Below are positions 2,936-17,939 of a stretch of DNA of 22,077 nt, one piece after another (the first letter of the stretch is position 1; each line of letters begins with the position of its first letter). The notes under the pieces were generated by a model that did not search any database, was not told the DNA's origin, and saw nothing but the letters and a program-made list of their open reading frames with translations. The translations under genes and the position numbers were made by a program. Source of the stretch: a virus; IMG/VR virus record IMGVR_UViG_3300036985_001490, positions 1 through 22,077 of that record, one strand, 5' to 3'.

Positions 2936-5900
2936 ATGGCGGTTAAGAATATAATCTTCAAAATCGAGGCGGACGTTGCTTCTCTCAAAAGAGAACTTGC
3001 CGGGGTCAATACTTCGGTTGACAATACAGAAAAAAAAGTGACTTCTCTCGGAAAGGCTTTCTCTTTAGCGGGAGCGGCCTTCGGAGGAATCGCGATCGGA
3101 TCTCAATTCGCTGAATTGGCGAAGCAATCGATCAACGCGGCCGCGGCCTTTGAAACTCTTGAGATCTCTTTTTCTACTTTCTTAGGCTCGGCCGAAGAAG
3201 GGGCGCGGGTCCTCAAAGAATTAGAACAATTCTCTTTGAAAACTCCTTTCACTCCGGCGCAAGTCCAAGAGGCCGGAAAGGCGCTTCTTGCTTTTGGAGA
3301 ACCCGTTGAGAAGTTGACCGCTACTTTGAAAAATATCGGAGACATTTCGGCGGGAACCGGAAAGAATTTCAATGAGTTGGCCATAATTTACGGAAAGGCT
3401 CGAACTCAAGGGACTCTCTACGCGGAAGACATTAATCAATTGACCGAGGCCGGGATTCCGATCATTGACACTCTCGCGGAGTCTTTGGGAACTTCGGCCG
3501 GGAATATCAAGAAACTCGCTTCGGAAGGAAAGATCGGATTCTCGGATTTGGAAAAAGGATTCCGAACTCTTACTTCTTCAGGAGGTCAATTCGAAGGATT
3601 GACGGAAAAGTTGGCTCAATCTACGGCCGGAAGACTCTCAACTTTACAAGGTAACGCGGAAGCGATTCGCCGGTCTTTTGGTGAGAGCCTTCTTCCGGTC
3701 TTTGAAGTCCTGATCAATACGGCGACGCAAGTCCTTTCCTTCTTTGGGAACTTCAACTCAATACTTGAAGCAAATCGAGCGGCCTTCGCTGCGGTTGGAG
3801 CGGCAATCGCTTTGTCGGTTGGTGCGATGACAAGAGACATTCAACTCAAAGTCTTATCCAACGCGGTGACTCTTGCTTTGGCTATCAAGGAACGCGCTCT
3901 CGCGGTGGCGACAAACATAAAAACAACCGCAACAAGGATCGCGACAACGGCTTCGCAAGGAGCGACATTCGCGACTCGAGTTCAAACGGTGGCGACGGAA
4001 GTCGCAACAATTGCGACAAAAGGATTCAACGCGGCGATCAAGGCGAACCCGCTCGGGATCCTGATCACTCTTTTGACAACTGCGGCGATCTTATTTGTTG
4101 ACTTCGCGGACGCGGCGGACGCGTCGGCGACTCAAGTTGAAAGATTCGCGGACGGGGCGAAGGCCTTCGGAGAGTTTGAACAATCCTTCAAGAAGAACTT
4201 GAACGAAGAAAAGGCGGCTCTTGCTGCGAACGTCGAACAAATCAAAAAGTCGAACGCGGGATCTCAAGAAAGGGCCGTCCTGATCAAGAAACTCAATGAT
4301 CAATTCGGAACAACGCTCACCAATTTAACGGACGAGAAGAAATTCGTTGCGGCGCTTGAAGTGGCCTATCTTTCCGCGACGGAAGCAATCAAGAAGAAGG
4401 CTCTTGCTTCGGCGGGAGAGGAGGCCTTGACAAACCTATACAAAGAACAAATTCGACTCACCGAGATTCTCAACGCAAACCTCGAAGAGAAGAAAAAGAT
4501 CTCCGATTCGGTGAACGCTCAATTTGCAACTTCCGACGTTGCGGTTGACAAGATTATCGAATCAAGGACCGGAATTCAAACGGCTCAAATCAATAATTCC
4601 AAAAAGGAACTCGCTCTTGTCAATTCGGCGATCGATAAGATCTCAAAAAGAACGGCCGAAGCGATCGGAGGACCAACCGATCCGATCAACATTCCGGTTT
4701 CGGTTGAATTGATCAACTCCCGGGCTAAATTGGCGGCCGACTTGGAGAAAGAACTTCGCGGACTCAAGATTGATCTTTCACAACAAGGACCTTCTTTTGT
4801 CGATCCTAAAAACGTGGAGGAAGCAAAGAAACAAGCGAAGGATCTCGCGGACGTTGATCGCGCAAGAGTGGACGAGGAGATCAACAATCGAATCAAAGAG
4901 TTTAAAAATAACGAAACCTATACTTCAGCGACGGCGAAACTTTTGGACGATATCAAAAAGAAGAAACTCGAAATCATTGCAAACCAAGAGGCGAATCAAC
5001 TTCAGATTATTGATATCAACGCGGCGGAAAGAGACTCCAAGGCCTTGAGGTCAATTGAAGAGACAAGTTTTGAAGAGAAGATCTTTCTTGCGGAAGAATC
5101 CAACAAAAGACTCGAGGAACTTCAACAAGAATCACTTGACAAGTTATCCAAGGCGACAAAGGCCAAAGACAAAGAAACAATTCAATCCGAGATCAACGCG
5201 CGACTTGATTTGATTCGTCAGGGATTAGAGAAAGAAAGACAACTTCGGGAGGCGGCGATCATTGCTCAAAGAAACGCGGATCTCGGGAATGTGAAACTCT
5301 CCGAAAAAGAAAAGGCGGCGATCACGGCGAAATCAAACCTTGAGATCCTGAAGTTGAATCAAAACTATTTGGATAAAAAAACGGCGGCCGGAAAAGAGGC
5401 CGGAGCAAAAACAACCGAAGACGACCTCAAAGTTCAACAAGAGATTACTCAAGGAATAATCAATTTGACGAAGGAGTCTTTGAGCGCTTTGAAAGAAATT
5501 TCGGCCGCTCGAATTCAAGAGGCGGATCTTGCAATCTCCAACCAACAAAAGAGAGTTGAACGCGCCGCGAAACTTGCGGAAAATGGAAACGTCGCAATCC
5601 TCGAATCGGAACAAGAAAAACTTGACAACTTGGTCCGCGCTCGTCAACAATATGTCCGACAACAACAAGTCCTCGGCCTTATTGAAATGACAACCAACTC
5701 CGCAATCGCAATCTCAAAGGCTGCGGCGGAAGGTGGCGCGGCGGCTCCTTTCACAATTGCGGCGACATTGATCGCTCTTGCGGCGGGATTTGTCGCGGCA
5801 AAGGCTCAAGCACAAGCGGCGGGAGGATTTGAAAAGGGCGGTTATACCGGCGACGGTGCAAGAAGAGAACCGGCCGGAATCGTTCACAAAGGGGAATTTG

Positions 5901-11887: not shown

Positions 11888-13561
11888 ATGACAATCGAAC
11901 AATTGAACGACAACTTCGGGAGACTTCCGGAGCCTAAAAACAAAAATAATTGGAACGAGGTTCGGAATACAATGTTCATTCACACGCGCGGAAGAAATCC
12001 CGGGAAGATTCTCACCATGAGAAGACCAAACGAGGATCCGGAAGTTCAAAAATATAGACTTGACACTTGGGAACCGATCACGAAGGGGAGCATGAATCGA
12101 GCAATTGACAAGTTGTTCCGGATCTTTTCTTCGGCCAACTTTTCGATCACGGTTTCGGCGGATCTTTCCGATTATTTGGATCAAAAGAAATTCTCGGGTC
12201 AATACTTTTATTCATACATTCAAAAATATATCGTTCGACGAATGATCGAAGATCCGAACGGTTATCTTGCTTGGATTCCCGGCGGAGAAGGCCTTTTCGA
12301 TCCTTCGGTCAAAGTGGAGGCGGAGGCCGTCTTGATATCCTCGGAAGATATCGTCTATCTTTCCGACGAGGCGATCTCTTGGTTGTCAAAAGAAAAGGAT
12401 ATCATTTTCACCGACGGAAAACAAAAAGAGGCGGACATAATTTTGACCCTTACAAAGACGGGTTTTTATAAGTCAACGGAAAGACGAGGAAACGGAAAGA
12501 ATAAAAAGTTCAATCTCGAATTGATATATCAACATGACACCGGAATTCTTCCGGCGATTGTTCTCGGTGGCGATGCGACGGACGAGGACTTCTTTGAATC
12601 TTACTTCTCCGCTTTTGTTCCTTTTGCGAACGAGGCAATTCGTCAATATAGTGATTGGGCGGGAGTGATGACAACAAGTTGTTTTCCATATCGCGAAGAG
12701 GTGGCGGATATTTGCGCGGCTCCGGGTTGTCGAGACGGACTTTGTTTCGATTCCTCAATTGACGAGGAGCGACCTTGTAAGAAATGCAAAGGGACCGGAA
12801 GAGTGATCTCTCGATCTCCTTTTGGCGTATTCATGAGAGATCGCGGATCCGATCCGATCAACGGTCCTCAAAGTGATTCTCCAATGATTCGATTCATTGG
12901 TCCTCCCGTTGATGTGATCAAGTATTCCGGGGAGGCTTGGGAGATATTATTGAAAAAGGCCGAAGAGGCTCTCAACTTGAACACAATTCAGGAGGCTCAA
13001 TCCGGAGAGGCGAAACGCGTTGATCGTGAGGATTCTTATATCGTACTCTCAAAGATCTCGAATAATATCTTTGACGAAATAATTTACAAGAGTTTATTGA
13101 TCATTGAGAAATATCGTCAAGTTGTTGATCCAATCGATCCGATAATTGTGAAACCAATTTCTTTCTCGATGAAGAACGAAGAAGATCTTCTTGACGAGGT
13201 TTCAAAACTTTCCGACAAGAACGCTCCGGTTGCTTTCTTAGTGGAGGCGACGAAGGATCTTGCAAAGAAGAGATTCTCCGGAAACAAGACTCTTTCCCGA
13301 ATGGTTGAAGTCCTTGTTGTTTACGATCCGATATATAACACAACGGCAAAAGACAAACTCGCTCTTCTTGCTTCGGGAGTGATCACTTTCTCGGATATGA
13401 TCAAGAGCCTCCACGCTTACAAGGTTTTGACTTCGCTTGTTGCGGAGGCCGGAACGGTATTTTTGGAGAAACCACTTGCGGAGATCTTTGTCGCAATGGA
13501 CGAAAAGATCAACTCAATCACTTCAGGAATTCAGCAAAATAACACGATTATTCTTCCTTAA
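11888..13561 (+). CDS. Phage portal protein with zinc-ribbon-like insert
   Basis: A 557-residue protein that I assign as portal, the dodecameric ring at the capsid vertex on which terminase docks. Evidence: its size, the mixed alpha/beta body, the long helical C-terminal third (EAWEILLKKAEEALNLNTIQEA onward, like portal stem and crown helices), and its place directly before a MuF-type minor head protein, the usual neighbour of SPP1/Mu-type portals. Residues 276-304 carry C276, C281, C286, C297 and C300, ending CKKCKGTGR, which resembles half of a DnaJ-type zinc motif and is not part of the classical portal fold. The ATG at 11888 follows eight A bases, an A-rich leader typical of Bacteroidetes. 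Confidence 0.7.
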   Translation: MTIEQLNDNFGRLPEPKNKNNWNEVRNTMFIHTRGRNPGKILTMRRPNEDPEVQKYRLDTWEPITKGSMNRAIDKLFRIFSSANFSITVSADLSDYLDQKKFSGQYFYSYIQKYIVRRMIEDPNGYLAWIPGGEGLFDPSVKVEAEAVLISSEDIVYLSDEAISWLSKEKDIIFTDGKQKEADIILTLTKTGFYKSTERRGNGKNKKFNLELIYQHDTGILPAIVLGGDATDEDFFESYFSAFVPFANEAIRQYSDWAGVMTTSCFPYREEVADICAAPGCRDGLCFDSSIDEERPCKKCKGTGRVISRSPFGVFMRDRGSDPINGPQSDSPMIRFIGPPVDVIKYSGEAWEILLKKAEEALNLNTIQEAQSGEAKRVDREDSYIVLSKISNNIFDEIIYKSLLIIEKYRQVVDPIDPIIVKPISFSMKNEEDLLDEVSKLSDKNAPVAFLVEATKDLAKKRFSGNKTLSRMVEVLVVYDPIYNTTAKDKLALLASGVITFSDMIKSLHAYKVLTSLVAEAGTVFLEKPLAEIFVAMDEKINSITSGIQQNNTIILP

Positions 13562-13564
13562 AAA

Positions 13565-15325
13565 ATGGACGACCAATTTTCAACCTCGATTCTCAAATTG
13601 ATTCGAGAAAAAGATTCTTTTATGAGTACCTCGGACAAGAGACTCTTGAAGAACTTCAATGAGATTGAAAAGTCGATTTATAAGGCCGTAAAAAAGACGA
13701 TCTCTTCGCTTAATCAAGAAGGAGGGAGGATTCTCTTTGATGAGAACAACACCGAGGAGATCAACAAGATCAACAAGATTATTCGAGACGCGATTCAAGG
13801 ATCTTCTTATCCTTCGGACGTCAAGACTTATCTCCGCGACTTTGATCAGGTGAAAGAATACAATCAAAAGACTCACGAAGAACTCAACGGGATCTCGAAC
13901 AAAGAATTCGAGAAGATTGTCGGACCAATTCAAAAGACGGTCGTTGATCAAACTCTTGAAGGATTGGTCGGGGCCGGAATCAACACCAACTTTTCGGATC
14001 CTCTTCGAAACGGACTCTTTCAGAATATCGTCTCCGGGACAACCTTTGAGAATCTTGAGTCTTTGATCTCTTCCTATATTTTAACCGATCCGGACAATTT
14101 GGGAAGGTTCAAAAGATACGTCGGACAAATTTCTCGCGACGCGCTCAACCAATACGACGGACAAGTCAACGCAAGAATCGCCGAAGATCTCGATCTCAAC
14201 GCGTTTCGATATGTTGGAAGTCTTATCGAGGACTCGCGTCCTCAATGTCGTCGTTGGGTTTTCAAGGAGATCCTTTTGAAAGAAAATCTTCCGGACGAGA
14301 TCGCTTGGGCCAACAACAACGGAACGGGAATGATCCCGGGAACCGACGAGAACAATTTCGCCGTCTATCGTGGAGGATACAATTGTCGACATTCGGCGAT
14401 TCCTTTCAAGATGACAAAGAGCCAAAGGGAACAACTCGGACTTCAGGAACAAAAACAAGAAGTCGAAGTTAATAATGTCGTTGATCAACAAATAAAAGAG
14501 ATCAGTCCTCAAAAGTCAATTGATAAGTCAATCCAAAAGATTGAAACGCAACAATCGCAAACGGCAAAAGTTGCGGACGGCTTGTTTTATAGTTCTCAAC
14601 CAATTGAAACGGTCAATTCGATGAATAACGTCCTTTTTAATACGGACGGAGTTGTTGACATTATCAATCAAGACAATGTCCGAATATTTCTTCGCAACAC
14701 AAAAGAATCAACTTCTCGGGGATATAAAACAATGAAGTCCGTCGAGGGAACGGTTCTTCCGACAAATTTTCGAGCGGCCAATATTTCAAAAAACTCGAAC
14801 GGAAATTGTTCAACAACGAATAGTTTTATGAATATTAAGATTTTGAAAGGAGAGAAGTCTGTTTTTGAAAAGATTGACATGAATTTCAACGAGTTGGATC
14901 ATGTTGACACAAGACTCACAACTTTCAACAATGATCAATATCTTATTTTTAATAAGACAATCGTTGCGCAGAAAAAGGGAGATCAGGATTGGAAATATTG
15001 GTCGGTGAGAGGGGCCTCAAATGCAAAAGGGAAAAAGAATGTCGCTCCGACAATCACTCACGAGGCCGGACATATATTCCAAAACAAATACGATCGGAGT
15101 TTGACGGTTTTCAATCGATTGATAAAAGAGAATGAACTCACTCTTCAAGACGCTCCAACGCTTTACGGAGAAACAAATTTTCGTGAGTTTTGGACCGAGT
15201 CTCTTACTTTTTATATTTATGACAACAAGACTCTCAAAGATAAAAATCCGAAGGTTTTCAAATTGGTTGAACAATACTTTTCAGAGTTTAACATTGATTT
15301 AAAAACGGTAAAACTTGCACCATGA
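13565..15325 (+). CDS. MuF-type head morphogenesis protein fused to HExxH metallopeptidase domain
   Basis: A 586-residue two-part protein. The N-terminal part (to about residue 285) is a minor head protein of the SPP1 gp7/Mu gpF type: a helical start, then the MuF core with SRPQC (C228) and GGYNCRHSAIPF (C274, R275, H276). Residues about 286-340 are a Gln/Lys-rich linker. The C-terminal domain has HEAGH at 499-503, an exact HExxH zinc-peptidase motif, followed about 40 residues later by TNFREFWTESLTFY (541-545), resembling the distal Glu helix of anthrax-lethal-factor-like minigluzincins. MuF proteins of temperate phages with variable C-terminal toxin domains are described, so this may be an effector carried in the head. 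A role in capsid maturation is the alternative. Its stop overlaps the next small gene (ATGA). Confidence 0.8.
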   Translation: MDDQFSTSILKLIREKDSFMSTSDKRLLKNFNEIEKSIYKAVKKTISSLNQEGGRILFDENNTEEINKINKIIRDAIQGSSYPSDVKTYLRDFDQVKEYNQKTHEELNGISNKEFEKIVGPIQKTVVDQTLEGLVGAGINTNFSDPLRNGLFQNIVSGTTFENLESLISSYILTDPDNLGRFKRYVGQISRDALNQYDGQVNARIAEDLDLNAFRYVGSLIEDSRPQCRRWVFKEILLKENLPDEIAWANNNGTGMIPGTDENNFAVYRGGYNCRHSAIPFKMTKSQREQLGLQEQKQEVEVNNVVDQQIKEISPQKSIDKSIQKIETQQSQTAKVADGLFYSSQPIETVNSMNNVLFNTDGVVDIINQDNVRIFLRNTKESTSRGYKTMKSVEGTVLPTNFRAANISKNSNGNCSTTNSFMNIKILKGEKSVFEKIDMNFNELDHVDTRLTTFNNDQYLIFNKTIVAQKKGDQDWKYWSVRGASNAKGKKNVAPTITHEAGHIFQNKYDRSLTVFNRLIKENELTLQDAPTLYGETNFREFWTESLTFYIYDNKTLKDKNPKVFKLVEQYFSEFNIDLKTVKLAP

Positions 15326-15513
15326 GAATAGAACAAATCCAAGAATTGAGTCAATTGACCGAAATCGCGGTTTTTAATTATGATGTTGATCAACTCAAAT
15401 TGATTCGAGCAATTATTGAAAAGGATTTTCAGGATTCCGAATATATCAACGAAGAGGGGGACGAATGGTTTTATTCCATGGTTCCGGACGATTTATTGAC
15501 GTTGATTGAATAA
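15322..15513 (+). CDS. Small acidic protein; possible partner of the MuF-metallopeptidase
   Basis: A 63-residue protein with about 16 Asp/Glu and only 4 Lys/Arg. It has an amphipathic helical start (IEQIQELSQLTEI) and a C-terminal acidic section (NEEGDEWFYSMVPDDLL). Its ATG overlaps the stop of the MuF-metallopeptidase gene as ATGA, so it is translationally coupled to that gene, and a promoter separates it from what follows. I do not recognise a family. The coupling, small size and strong negative charge would fit an immunity protein or inhibitor that keeps the metallopeptidase domain inactive in the producing cell. This is inference from layout; it could equally be a small structural or assembly factor. 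Confidence 0.6.
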   Translation: MRIEQIQELSQLTEIAVFNYDVDQLKLIRAIIEKDFQDSEYINEEGDEWFYSMVPDDLLTLIE

Positions 15514-15561: not shown

Positions 15562-15918
15562 ATGGAAAAAGTAAGAATTCAAAACATTAAGACCGGGAGA
15601 ATGATTGATCTTTCTCGAAAGGCGGTCGACCTATTAAAAACAAACGGCAAATTCGGAGACTTTGACGAGTTGGAAGTTGTTTCTCCTTCAACTCCTTTGC
15701 TACGTTCAAAGGATTTCGTTCCTCCGGTTAATTCAGGCGCTCAAAAAATGGATCAAGAAAATCTCACCGAAAAGGAAGAAGAGAAAGACTTGACTTTTGA
15801 CGAGTTGACAAGTACGGAAATCGGAGAAGATCTTCTTCCTGAAGTGGAGGAAGGACAAGAATTTGTTTCTTTTGAAGTGATTGACAAGTCAGCAACAAAA
15901 CCAAAAAAAAAGAAGTAA
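15562..15918 (+). CDS. Small phage hypothetical protein in head module
   Basis: A 118-residue protein. The first 45 residues look folded (VRIQNIKTGRMIDLSRKAVDLL then a Gly/Phe-rich turn and DELEVV), a pattern common in small phage head-region proteins in which a short beta unit is followed by a helix. The middle is a Glu/Asp-rich, probably disordered stretch and the end is Lys-rich (KPKKKK). I start it at the ATG at 15562, 15 bases after a promoter box; an earlier TTG at 15544 lies inside that box. It lies between the MuF unit and the scaffold and ends three bases before the scaffold ATG. Its function is unknown; a small capsid-assembly accessory is a reasonable guess. Confidence 0.65.
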   Translation: MEKVRIQNIKTGRMIDLSRKAVDLLKTNGKFGDFDELEVVSPSTPLLRSKDFVPPVNSGAQKMDQENLTEKEEEKDLTFDELTSTEIGEDLLPEVEEGQEFVSFEVIDKSATKPKKKK

Positions 15919-15921
15919 GAT

Positions 15922-16743
15922 ATGAAGAACGTTGAAAGTTTTCTCAAAAAGATCGGTTTGAAACCTGATCAAATTACAACATTGATCGCTGAAGAGTCGG
16001 CGGACATTGATCCAATATTCAACTCTTTCAAGGCTTCTCAAAAGATCGCGATTTCAAACGATCCGGATTTCATTCAGTCGATAACGACCGAGATCAGGGG
16101 GACCGAACTATCAAAGGCGGAACACAAGATCCGAAAGACTTTCGGGTTGAGCGCTGAAGAAGTAAAAGAAAAGAAGTTCGACGAGATTATCTCAATCGCT
16201 TTTGATAAGGCGAAGAGTTCGGTTTCGGGAACTACGGAAGAACTTCAAAATCGTCTTGTTGCGGTTGCGGCCGAGAACAAAAGACTTCTCGAGGAAGTGA
16301 TCCCGGCAAAAGAAAAAGAGGCTTCTTCTGTGATCTCTTCTTTCAAAAAAGACGCGGCGATCCGTTCCTTTTTACTTGGGAAGGCTCCTTCTTTGACCAC
16401 AACTCCCGAAGTCCTTCTTCCGGCGATCAATTTGAATCTTTCTTCAAAGTACAATATTGACGTTGATCAGGAAGGAAAGATCGTTGTCAAGACAAAGGCG
16501 AATCTTGATCCATTGTCGAAAGACGGAACGAAAGTGATCGGTTTTGAGGATATCTTGAACGATCATATTGTTGAACTTGGAGTTGTGAAACAATCCAACG
16601 CGGGAGCGGGAGGGGCGAATCCGATCAAAGGACAAGAGAGAAAAGAGTTTTCAAACGATCCTCCGAAGTTCAACTTCCCGGGAATGAAGGCGGCCGCGGA
16701 TAATGTCGAAGCGATGAAAAATATGAAGACCTTCGGATCATAG
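15922..16743 (+). CDS. Putative capsid scaffolding protein
   Basis: A 273-residue protein directly upstream of the probable major capsid gene, where scaffolds lie in many tailed phages. It starts with a possible helical hairpin (VESFLKKIGLKPDQITTLIAEE). Residues about 95-150 form a coiled coil (TEELQNRLVAVAAENKRLLEEV and KEKEASSVISSFKKD). The C-terminus (about 220-273) is a Gly/Pro/Ala/Asn/Lys-rich flexible tail ending in a helix, similar to the capsid-binding ends of scaffolds. No peptidase motif is visible, so it is more likely a pure scaffold than a protease-scaffold fusion. The assignment rests on coiled-coil content and position. Confidence 0.6.
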   Translation: MKNVESFLKKIGLKPDQITTLIAEESADIDPIFNSFKASQKIAISNDPDFIQSITTEIRGTELSKAEHKIRKTFGLSAEEVKEKKFDEIISIAFDKAKSSVSGTTEELQNRLVAVAAENKRLLEEVIPAKEKEASSVISSFKKDAAIRSFLLGKAPSLTTTPEVLLPAINLNLSSKYNIDVDQEGKIVVKTKANLDPLSKDGTKVIGFEDILNDHIVELGVVKQSNAGAGGANPIKGQERKEFSNDPPKFNFPGMKAAADNVEAMKNMKTFGS

Positions 16744-16919: not shown

Positions 16920-17939
16920 ATGGCTTATACTGAAGGACTATGTTCCAAACTTCAAGCAAATCTTGTTGACATTGCGGGTTATAACGCTCCGGCGCTTAAC
17001 CGTCAAAAAGTTGGTTTTATTGATGCTCTTATGAGTGATATCAATCGAATCAATATCAGAACCGAAATCGTCCCAACGAACGGAAAATTCCGTGCGGTTC
17101 AAATTAACTATCAAAGTCAGGCTTGTGACGATGATGTTTCAACGGATCCAACTCCGAATTGTACGACTTCACTTGCTCCGGCTCCTTCCGAGGCTTTGAT
17201 CACTTCTTTCGATGTGGCAAAGTACAAGATGAAGTTCGCCGAGAACGACATGAGAAAATTATGTGAGGCGGATTCGGTTTGGGTTGGTCAAAATATAATG
17301 AGAGCGATGAACGCCGTGAACATGAAAGTTGACAAGTTGATTCTTGCAACTCAAGCGGCGAACATGGGGACATTTGCGGACGGATCAGTTTCGAAAGATA
17401 TTCCTTTGTTTAACTCAACAACTCAAGGTCCTAACGCAATGGCTTGGGCGGGAATTCGTCACTATTACGATGAGTTAGGCGCGGCTTCAACTCCTTTAAT
17501 CGTTGGCGGAGGTTCAATCGATTTATACGCAAAGGCTCAACAAATCGCTTGTTGCAATTCAACGGTTGGAATGGATTTGGCAAGAATGACGGGCGACGGG
17601 TACTTTTACAATGATGTGAACGTGAACTCGGTTTTTGATCCGACTCAATTCATTGTCTTGGCTCCGGGTGCGGTTCAATTAGTGACTTGGAACAAATATC
17701 TTGGCGACTACGCGAAGAGAAGTGATTCTTTCGAACACGGGACAATCGTTGATCCTTTCACGGGCTTGGTTTACGACTTAAAGACTTCTTATGATGATTG
17801 TACTGAATCTTGGTACGTTGAGTTGGCTTTGAATTATAACTTGTTTCAAGTTCCGGCGGCTTTCTGTGTTGATGCGGGAGTGAATATGTCACTTTTATTC
17901 GAAGATTGTTCAACTTCTCCAATTGGTTGTGGAGGTTAA
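16920..17939 (+). CDS. Probable major capsid protein
   Basis: A 339-residue protein with size, composition and context of a major capsid protein: it follows portal, MuF and scaffold genes and has its own strong-looking promoter and long leader. The sequence is balanced, without signal or membrane segments. Landmarks are GYNAPALNRQKVGFIDALMSDINRINI near the N-terminus, AKYKMKFAENDMRKLCEADSV in the middle and FIVLAPGAVQLVTWNKYLGDY followed by EHGTIVDPFTGLVYDL in the C-terminal third. Such late segments are typical of the HK97-fold A-domain and spine. Ten or so cysteines (for example ACCN and CDDD) are unusual for a capsid protein. I could not confirm the fold by eye; another abundant virion protein remains possible. 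Confidence 0.7.
   Translation: MAYTEGLCSKLQANLVDIAGYNAPALNRQKVGFIDALMSDINRINIRTEIVPTNGKFRAVQINYQSQACDDDVSTDPTPNCTTSLAPAPSEALITSFDVAKYKMKFAENDMRKLCEADSVWVGQNIMRAMNAVNMKVDKLILATQAANMGTFADGSVSKDIPLFNSTTQGPNAMAWAGIRHYYDELGAASTPLIVGGGSIDLYAKAQQIACCNSTVGMDLARMTGDGYFYNDVNVNSVFDPTQFIVLAPGAVQLVTWNKYLGDYAKRSDSFEHGTIVDPFTGLVYDLKTSYDDCTESWYVELALNYNLFQVPAAFCVDAGVNMSLLFEDCSTSPIGCGG

What the first reader, a model, noticed from the sequence alone, without database searches (positions are those of the whole stretch)
14580..15513. MuF head protein with an HExxH metallopeptidase domain and a coupled acidic small gene: candidate virion-borne toxin and immunity pair
Seen: after the MuF core (C228, C274-R-H) and a linker comes a 245-residue domain with HEAGH (499-503) and, about 40 residues later, TNFREFWTESL, like the distal Glu helix of lethal-factor-type minigluzincins. 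The next gene (15322-15513) overlaps by ATGA, encodes 63 residues and has about 16 acidic against 4 basic residues. Known: temperate-phage MuF proteins with polymorphic C-terminal toxin domains have been described. Inference: the domain is injected or carried with DNA and cleaves a host or competitor protein, and the small protein protects the producing cell. A maturation protease is the rival idea, supported by the lack of another visible capsid protease.
Basis: partly seen in the sequence, partly recalled or inferred. Interest (0 to 1): 0.75.

Follow-up and report, generated by a model that had tools for sequence, protein, structure and literature searches.

The report
Swappable phage-head protease with small partner
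A phage head protein carries a protease-like tail domain that, together with a tiny neighbouring gene, is swapped as one unit between closely related phages, which suggests a phage-delivered protease and its matching off-switch.

Summary
ORF 13565-15325 is a MuF/minor-capsid-like head protein with a C-terminal gluzincin domain (H499 E500 H503, Y534, E541, E545). AlphaFold (pLDDT 80.6) places it beside anthrax lethal factor domain IV and PPEP-1. The 63-residue gene overlaps it by ATGA.

Relatives give a natural experiment. Of 79 family proteins, 22 have a long C-terminus and all 22 carry HExxH. In pairs with 92-98% identical flanking DNA, a cassette from 12-38 residues after the CRH motif to about the stop of the small gene is present, absent or exchanged. 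Partner similarity follows domain similarity (partial r 0.87 given core similarity; 0 of 5000 permutations). In cultured pelagiphages one domain-partner pair sits on two cores without detectable similarity.

A maturation protease is unlikely. Best reading: a virion-borne protease effector with a dedicated partner, probably an inhibitor. Injection, proteolysis and toxicity are inferred. Against: some zincin forms lack such a partner (L062, L245), and L266 has an unrelated one.

MuF-metallopeptidase toxins with small ORFs are published as temperate-phage genes; here no integrase was found, including in four apparently closed genomes. New variant of a known kind.

The parts
11888..13561 (+). portal-like protein, directly upstream
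   Evidence: 557-aa ORF; an ORF of similar size lies upstream of the MuF-like gene in relatives and an annotated portal gene does so in HTVC026P; no Pfam or PHROG hit of its own
13565..15325 (+). head protein of 586 aa: MuF/minor-capsid-like core plus C-terminal gluzincin
13565..14392 (+). core, residues 1-276, ending in RGGYNCRH; shared with long and short relatives
   Evidence: alignments A2 and A6; core identities
14393..14440 (+). hinge SAIPFKMTKSQRE..., conserved among the nearest long relatives; homology between close relatives with different cassettes breaks about here
   Evidence: alignment, blastn boundaries
14558..15322 (+). gluzincin (type A) domain, residues 332-586, as modelled
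   Evidence: AlphaFold2 pLDDT 80.6, pTM 0.84; VIA-align Z 12.8 to anthrax lethal factor 572-776, 11.5 to Zmp1/PPEP-1; Foldseek best E 1.5e-3
15059..15073 (+). HEAGH, residues 499-503 (predicted zinc-binding helix)
   Evidence: HExxH in 16 of 16 distinct type A domains
15164..15166 (+). Tyr534, seven residues before Glu541, as Tyr728/Glu735 of lethal factor
   Evidence: 14 of 16 distinct type A domains, Leu in L262 and L263; lethal factor residues from passages of PMC3496994
15182..15202 (+). REFWTES, residues 540-546, with Glu541 (predicted third zinc ligand) and Glu545
   Evidence: both Glu 16 of 16
15322..15513 (+). 63-aa acidic, predicted all-helical partner gene, ATGA overlap
   Evidence: a profile of 15 homologues finds below E 0.2 only genes directly behind type A zincins among 7508 ORFs; dN/dS below 1; AlphaFold2 pLDDT 85.6, four helices
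15544..15918 (+). next head-region gene (ATG at 15562 in the frame of relatives), outside the cassette
   Evidence: an ORF of 80-127 aa follows at this place in relatives with type A, B and C cassettes
15922..16743 (+). scaffold-like protein
   Evidence: ORFs of 273-280 aa at this place in the near relatives; no family hit over cut-off; HTVC026P has an annotated scaffolding protein in the same place
16920..17939 (+). major-capsid-like protein
   Evidence: position and relatives; no family hit

Best explanation
A phage head protein delivers a metalloprotease effector, and the small gene encodes its dedicated cytoplasmic partner, most likely an inhibitor. The core is built into the virion near the portal like other MuF proteins. 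The C-terminal gluzincin rides inside and enters the next cell with the DNA, where it cleaves one or more cell proteins. The 63-residue protein, made from the same message through the ATGA overlap, keeps the enzyme off while the producing cell assembles virions. Domain and partner form one cassette that phages gain, lose and exchange by recombination. Shown here: gene structure, predicted fold with conserved active-site pattern, cassette boundaries, presence/absence and exchange, pairing of domain and partner, purifying selection. Inferred from known MuF proteins: location in the virion. Inferred only: ejection, proteolysis, target, inhibition, harm to the recipient.
For: Fold and active site. 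All 22 long members among 79 family proteins have HExxH, found by a search on the core alone. Survey on the RGGYNCRH motif, all 119 loci held: 22 long, 15 with HExxH; 13 of these 15 are followed by a 59-80-aa ORF starting at -4 to +1 nt, against 10 of 91 short closed forms with room downstream that have an ORF of 40-100 aa at -20 to +5. Exchange or presence/absence between close relatives: L062/L064, L061/L062, L128/L130, L129/L130, L085/L068, L125/L119. Partner similarity follows domain similarity, partial r 0.87, 0 of 5000 permutations; partner classes. Scar of a type A small gene behind the type B pair of L061. Type F domain and partner in HTVC026P and Kolga on cores without detectable similarity, and absent from three phages with cores 64-71% identical to that of HTVC026P. 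Published MuF toxins show the same layout: 20% of 191 with a metallopeptidase, 89.4% followed by a small ORF (PMC5576092 sections 7 and 8).
Against: L062 carries a zincin with no small gene. L245 is followed by a 482-aa ORF and L259 by a 105-aa ORF. L266 carries a type A zincin with a follower that the type A partner profile does not find. The long forms seen with these cores are zincins or XkdF-like fusions, with one unclear short extension (L231), so the set is narrower than classic polymorphic toxins. No integrase or repressor family was found, so protection of a lysogen is not an obvious use. Foldseek has no match at E 0.001 or better in PDB or the viral library. Pfam ATLF does not hit the window protein. 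The complex was not modelled; toxicity and virion location were not measured.
Confidence: 0.6

Rival explanations
1. Entry aid: the zincin is a virion protease that helps DNA ejection or early take-over (for example by clearing a barrier or an antiphage protein), and the small protein is a loading chaperone or assembly-time latch, not immunity against a toxin.
For: The long members carry proteases rather than mixed toxins. No lysogeny genes found, so killing competitors of a lysogen is not the obvious gain. Some zincin forms do without such a partner. PMC5512222 (passages) links zincins in polyvalent phage and plasmid proteins to processing of the polypeptide.
Against: The partner is exchanged with the domain and was left as a scar when replaced in L061, which fits specific inhibitor pairs at least as well; short relatives lack the domain altogether.
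Confidence: 0.22
2. Head maturation protease: the zincin cleaves scaffold, portal or capsid proteins during assembly.
For: No other capsid protease was recognised in the window. Five of 119 RGGYNCRH proteins match the XkdF signature used and a sixth (L258) looks similar by eye; Pfam confirms the two tested.
Against: Close relatives lack the domain: L085 against L068 at 92.5% and 94.4% DNA identity on the two sides, L125 against L119 at 94%, cores 99% and 97% identical. Subtypes are exchanged between phages whose neighbouring head genes are 94-98% identical. Among the XkdF-like fusions the nearest downstream ORFs are 195-245 aa at +54 to +61 in three, 63 aa at +3 in L173, none listed for L258, and L181 is cut off.
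Confidence: 0.06
3. The small gene is an ordinary head-region gene whose pairing with the domain only reflects shared ancestry.
For: Some short-MuF relatives also have a 63-aa gene directly behind MuF, a different one; 10 of 91 short forms of the survey have a small ORF there.
Against: Pairing holds after correction for core similarity. Near-identical cores have unrelated partners when domains differ (L085/L086, L128/L130), and domain and partner recur together on a dissimilar core (Kolga).
Confidence: 0.07

Closest known systems
MuF polymorphic toxins of temperate phages (PMC5576092)
   Same: Head protein with C-terminal toxin-type domain, small ORF directly behind, polymorphic C-terminus; that paper reports metallopeptidase domains in 20% of 191 MuF toxins and small ORFs behind 89.4%
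   Different: That paper found MuF toxins only in temperate phages (its test for phages gave p = 0.055); here no integrase or repressor family was found, including in four apparently closed genomes. The core reaches no Pfam MuF cut-off. The long forms seen here are zincins or XkdF-like fusions, apart from one unclear case
Bxa and Bacteroidales prophage MuF toxins (PMC11699363)
   Same: MuF N-terminus, exchangeable C-terminal domain, small adjacent immunity ORFs; host phylum Bacteroidota is likely here too
   Different: Tested activity there is ADP-ribosylation, and other predicted domains are deaminase and alarmone synthetase; here gluzincins with other partners and no experiment
Anthrax lethal factor domain IV / PPEP-1 (M34-type gluzincins; family label recalled)
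   Same: Predicted fold (Z 12.8 and 11.5) and HExxH...Tyr-x6-Glu pattern
   Different: About 15-20% identity; phage head protein, not a secreted toxin; Pfam ATLF does not hit the window and hits relatives only below its cut-off. Nothing here suggests action on animals
Cultured pelagiphages HTVC026P (gp30-gp31) and Kolga EXVC016S (gp59-gp60)
   Same: Same architecture: core, gluzincin, overlapping partner of 60 or 56 aa, then head genes
   Different: Type F domain and partner, not type A; annotated as hypothetical proteins except gp59 (putative head morphogenesis protein)

Membership tests
MuF polymorphic toxin | MuF domain by profile | tested here: inconclusive
   Window core: Phage_min_cap2 below cut-off, no Phage_Mu_F; L035, another MuF-zincin, hits Phage_min_cap2 over cut-off and Phage_Mu_F below it in the same region; profile comparison with Phage_Mu_F-type cores gave no match
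MuF polymorphic toxin | Gene in the packaging/head module next to the portal | tested here: met
   annotated portal and scaffolding genes flank the homologue in HTVC026P
MuF polymorphic toxin | C-terminal extension that varies between close relatives | tested here: met
MuF polymorphic toxin | Small ORF (<150 aa) directly behind the long form | tested here: met
   Window yes; 14 of 15 distinct cassettes of the core family; 13 of 15 zincin forms of the motif survey by a stricter 40-100 aa rule
MuF polymorphic toxin | Found in temperate phages | tested here: inconclusive
   PF00589: 0 of 23 and 0 of 22 virus records; PF00239: 0 of 23 and 0 of 7; PF07508: 0 of 9; HTH_3 and S24: 0 of 10 each. Most records are fragments, and the window is one
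MuF polymorphic toxin | Toxicity and protection by the partner | not testable with these tools
   Needs expression
M34 / lethal-factor-like gluzincin | HExxH plus distal Glu | tested here: met
   16 of 16 distinct type A domains; metal binding itself not testable
M34 / lethal-factor-like gluzincin | Fold of the catalytic domain (predicted) | tested here: met
   VIA-align Z 12.8, 3.4 A over 169 residues; Foldseek only E 1.5e-3 to 2.6e-3
M34 / lethal-factor-like gluzincin | Reaches the Pfam ATLF (PF07737) gathering score | tested here: not met
   Window no hit at E 1; 8 of 10 zincin proteins and 3 of the 8 zincin domains hit ATLF, each below cut-off. So not filed as a member of PF07737
Head maturation protease | Present in close relatives with the same head genes | tested here: not met
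   L068, L119 and other short forms lack it

The most novel reading that the evidence does not exclude
Phages without recognisable lysogeny genes carry allelic protease-inhibitor pairs in their heads as a phage-against-phage weapon. A cell already infected by one allele makes the matching inhibitor and so tolerates superinfection by the same allele, while a phage with another allele brings an unblocked protease. The slot is given over to proteases because the target is a protein common to the infected cell or the competing phage, not because the domain is a general poison.
Probability: 0.15. Interest if true: 0.85.

Novelty: new variant of a known kind. Interest (0 to 1): 0.6.

Why it matters
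It offers a natural experiment, phages with 92-98% identical flanking DNA around a present, absent or exchanged cassette, on whether MuF C-terminal domains are dispensable cargo with cognate partners. It extends the class towards phages with no detected integrase, where guarding a lysogen is not the obvious reason for an immunity gene. It points to named cultured phages (HTVC026P with the cassette; HTVC111P, HTVC112P and HTVC202P without; Kolga with a related pair on another core) in which virion content, infection and partner function can be measured.

Tried and rejected
Domain-only searches with the window's own sequence found nothing in viral contigs, phages or plasmids, and only a chance match (E 1.9) among PDB sequences. 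NCBIfam gave nothing. PHROGs gave the window protein only weak matches (best E 0.044); relatives' domains match the C-terminal ends of two head-morphogenesis PHROGs weakly to moderately (L086 to phrog_4728 E 4.6e-9, L056 to phrog_241 E 7e-4), a sign that such fusions are already in known phage families. The first pattern scan required HExGH plus EF[WFY][AT]E and is therefore biased; its 53 loci were not used for the claim that all long forms of the core family are zincins. Of its proteins with a tail under 60 residues, 31 are listed; small ORFs start close behind many of the MuF-like ones, with exceptions (L008, L010, L021, L032, L041, L051, and L017 and L046, which are cut off); I did not count these strictly. 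The type A partner profile scored the 114-119-aa gene of some short-MuF phages at E 0.2-0.96, taken as chance. Foldseek with the small protein gave nothing below E 1.8; with the domain in the viral library nothing at E 0.001 or better, best 2.3e-3. The type A profile in 395 genomes of one phylum matched 13, each only over part of the profile (best rows span positions 149-248); of seven proteins read, five resemble small secreted HEF[GA]H...EYWAE proteins and two MtfA-like ones (labels recalled). Ten bacterial-genome loci with a related core showed no HExxH extension. Subtype letters: in phmmer at E 1e-4 the domains of 25 cassettes form only four groups (A+D+F without L128, B+E, L062, L128); I named finer subtypes by eye and with the partner class in view, so the letters alone are partly circular. 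The permutation test does not use them. Rows dropped before counts: identical cassettes L058, L059, L065, L066, L088, L129 and truncated L079 for the 15 distinct; L062 (no partner) and L168 (core cut off) from the permutation test, which also left out L263, L266 and L279. My first survey count covered 80 of the 119 loci held; the recount on all 119 brought in L245 and L259, which go against a universal partner.

Full report
What is there. The window is a 22,077-base virus record with no host named. ORF 13565-15325 encodes 586 residues and the overlapping ORF 15322-15513 encodes 63. The head protein lies between a portal-like ORF and scaffold-like and capsid-like ORFs. Pfam gives only a weak Phage_min_cap2 match in the core and nothing that I would trust in the C-terminal domain or the small protein; NCBIfam gives nothing.

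Fold. With seven homologous domains as alignment, AlphaFold2 modelled residues 332-586 at mean pLDDT 80.6 and pTM 0.84; residues 112-134 of the model are below 50. Foldseek's best solved structures are PPEP-1 (E 1.5e-3) and anthrax lethal factor (E 2.6e-3), none at 0.001 or better. A second alignment of Foldseek's own matches gives Z 12.8 to lethal factor residues 572-776 (169 residues, 3.4 A) and Z 11.5 to Zmp1/PPEP-1. Among 16 distinct domains of this subtype (type A), H499, E500, H503, E541, E545, Y550 and E574 are identical in all, Y534 in 14 and C415 in 15. The Tyr-x6-Glu spacing is that of Tyr728 and Glu735 of lethal factor (passages of PMC3496994).

Relatives and the natural experiment. 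A search with the core of the window and of L002 gave 78 relatives. With the window that makes 79 proteins: 22 have more than 39 residues after the CRH motif, and all 22 hold HExxH there. The other 57 show at most 39 residues after the motif, among them L083, which is cut off 4 residues after it, or, in L131, end before it. After removing identical or cut copies, 15 distinct cassettes remain, which I letter A (window, L056, L057, L060, L064), B (L061, L063), C (L062), D (L085, L101, L128) and E (L086, L087, L125, L130). The domains of 25 cassettes (these and ten from the survey below) all link at E 0.01 in phmmer, so they look like branches of one zincin superfamily; at 1e-4 they form four groups. 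The partner genes fall into five classes that do not link at E 0.01. The finer letters were set partly with the partner in view.

Cores and cassettes have separate histories. L062 and L064 have 93% identical cores but C and A domains; L128 and L130 97% with D and E; L085 and L086 97% with D and E; L085 and short L068 99%; L125 and short L119 97%. DNA alignment shows the edges: L062 and L064 are 95.3% identical up to position 5866 and 97.6% again from 6681/6981; L129 and L130 95.8% and 95.7% on the two sides; L085 has about 900 bases that L068 lacks, L125 about 830 that L119 lacks. The break lies 12-38 residues after the CRH motif, and in these pairs homology resumes within about 12 bases of the small gene's stop. 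L061, with a type B pair, keeps the 3' end of a type A small gene behind it. L087/L130 and L268/L278 have lower dS in the cassette than in the core, and L269/L274 the reverse, which fits exchange; some of these dS values are saturated.

Pairing. For 30 cassettes with a partner and an adequate core, correlation of domain similarity with partner similarity is 0.92, and 0.87 with core similarity held constant; 0 of 5000 permutations reach it. A profile of 15 type A partners finds, among 7508 ORFs of the loci then held, below E 0.2 only genes directly behind type A zincins. Results the other way: L062 has no partner, and L266, a type A domain on a core that weakly matches Phage_Mu_F, has a 72-residue follower that the profile does not find.

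All 119 hold the motif in frame: 96 end within 60 residues, one is cut off, 22 are longer. Of the 22, 15 have HExxH, five match an XkdF signature (two tested by Pfam, both hits), one more (L258) looks XkdF-like by eye, and L231 has a 74-residue extension of unclear nature. Thirteen of the 15 zincin forms are followed by a 59-80-aa ORF at -4 to +1; L245 is followed by a 482-aa ORF and L259 by a 105-aa ORF. As a control, 10 of 91 short closed forms with room downstream have an ORF of 40-100 aa at -20 to +5.

Cultured examples. Tblastn with the window protein hit four pelagiphages. In HTVC026P gp30 is 608 aa with RGGYNCRH, then HEFGH and EFFAE, followed by an overlapping 60-aa gene. HTVC111P, HTVC112P and HTVC202P have 64-71% identical cores, end 18 residues after CRH and go straight to the scaffolding gene. 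The gp30 domain matches L168 and L194 (type F), and so does gp31. In Kolga and Aegir the tblastn match covers only the domain (residues 337-605), so their core is not detectably similar to that of gp30. Kolga gp59, annotated as putative head morphogenesis protein, is followed by gp60, which a profile of three type F partners finds at E 2.2e-7. Aegir has an annotated pair in the same layout that I did not translate. So domain and partner recur together on dissimilar cores.

Lifestyle. PF00589 was found in 0 of 23 and 0 of 22 virus records (the two bacterial assemblies had many matches) and in 0 of 4 and 0 of 1 pelagiphages. PF00239: 0 of 23, 0 of 7, 0 of 2. PF07508: 0 of 9. HTH_3 and S24: 0 of 10 each. 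Many of these records are short fragments. Four cassette-bearing contigs of 32.0-34.4 kb have matching ends and look closed: G001 and G027 (127 bases exact), G005 (132 bases, 3 mismatches) and G031 (340 bases, 1 mismatch); all four were in the searches above. Missing markers do not prove a virulent life. PMC8163748 (passages), which describes Kolga, reports that infection dynamics of most of its isolates suggest lysogeny or chronic infection despite lacking the genes, or host bistability, and that 16 of 29 earlier SAR11 viruses are temperate or carry such genes; I did not see its verdict on Kolga or HTVC026P.

Hosts. Genome contigs with related cores are mostly Bacteroidota assemblies; giving these phages to that phylum is an inference, and pelagiphages show that the design is not limited to it.

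Literature. PMC5576092 (passages, sections 7, 8 and 11) describes MuF toxins, a metallopeptidase in 20% of 191, small ORFs behind 89.4% against 25.5% of short forms, and none with a known toxin domain in virulent phages (p = 0.055). PMC11699363 (abstract, section 7) shows tested immunity for a Bacteroides MuF toxin. PMC3482391 (passages, section 17) lists lethal-factor-like peptidase toxins mainly with another delivery system. PMC5512222 (passages) treats MuF fusions as delivered effectors. Other papers were seen only as search listings. Beyond these, five searches listed no title or abstract start that describes gluzincin-partner cassettes in phages without lysogeny genes; the library lacks most subscription journals.

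Verdict. The cassette is real, mobile, dispensable and in most cases paired. Its most likely use is as a virion-borne protease effector with a cognate inhibitor. The step from there to toxin and immunity is reasonable but untested.

Noticed in passing
window 11888-13561 and portal ORFs of relatives: Portal-like ORFs carry DnaJ-type CxxCxGxG motifs (label recalled): 59 of 68 found have a CxxCxGxG and at least two CxxC; the window has one CKKCKGTG and is not among the 59.
   Followed up: partly
L144, L154, L173, L181, L209, L258: MuF-like RGGYNCRH proteins whose long C-terminus looks like the XkdF prohead protease; Pfam confirms L144 and L209, the only two tested.
   Followed up: partly
L061 6880-6963: Remnant of a type A small gene behind a type B zincin-partner pair, a scar of cassette replacement.
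   Followed up: yes
L062 5868-6680: A zincin cassette with no partner gene; homology to relatives resumes about 10 bases after the stop.
   Followed up: partly
L245 and L259: Zincin-bearing RGGYNCRH proteins without a 40-100-aa follower; L259 is 1042 residues long in the open frame and may hold further domains.
   Followed up: no
L301, L302, L303, L305, L306: Genomes of the phylum searched encode proteins in open frames of 224-241 residues that start like secreted proteins and hold HEF[GA]H...EYWAE, like the catalytic helices of the phage domain.
   Followed up: no
L266 2113-2904: Type A zincin on a different head-protein core, followed by a 72-aa gene that the type A partner profile does not find.
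   Followed up: partly
L003, L004, L005, L011, L025, L035, L040, L045, L050, L054: MuF-like zincin proteins from the biased motif scan are also followed by ORFs of 53-68 aa overlapping by 1-4 bases.
   Followed up: partly
L085 / L101 partner genes: The type D partner is Cys-rich (CxxCKH...C.AF.DDIP); that of L085 matches phrog_33375, a family of unknown function, at E 2.4e-5.
   Followed up: no
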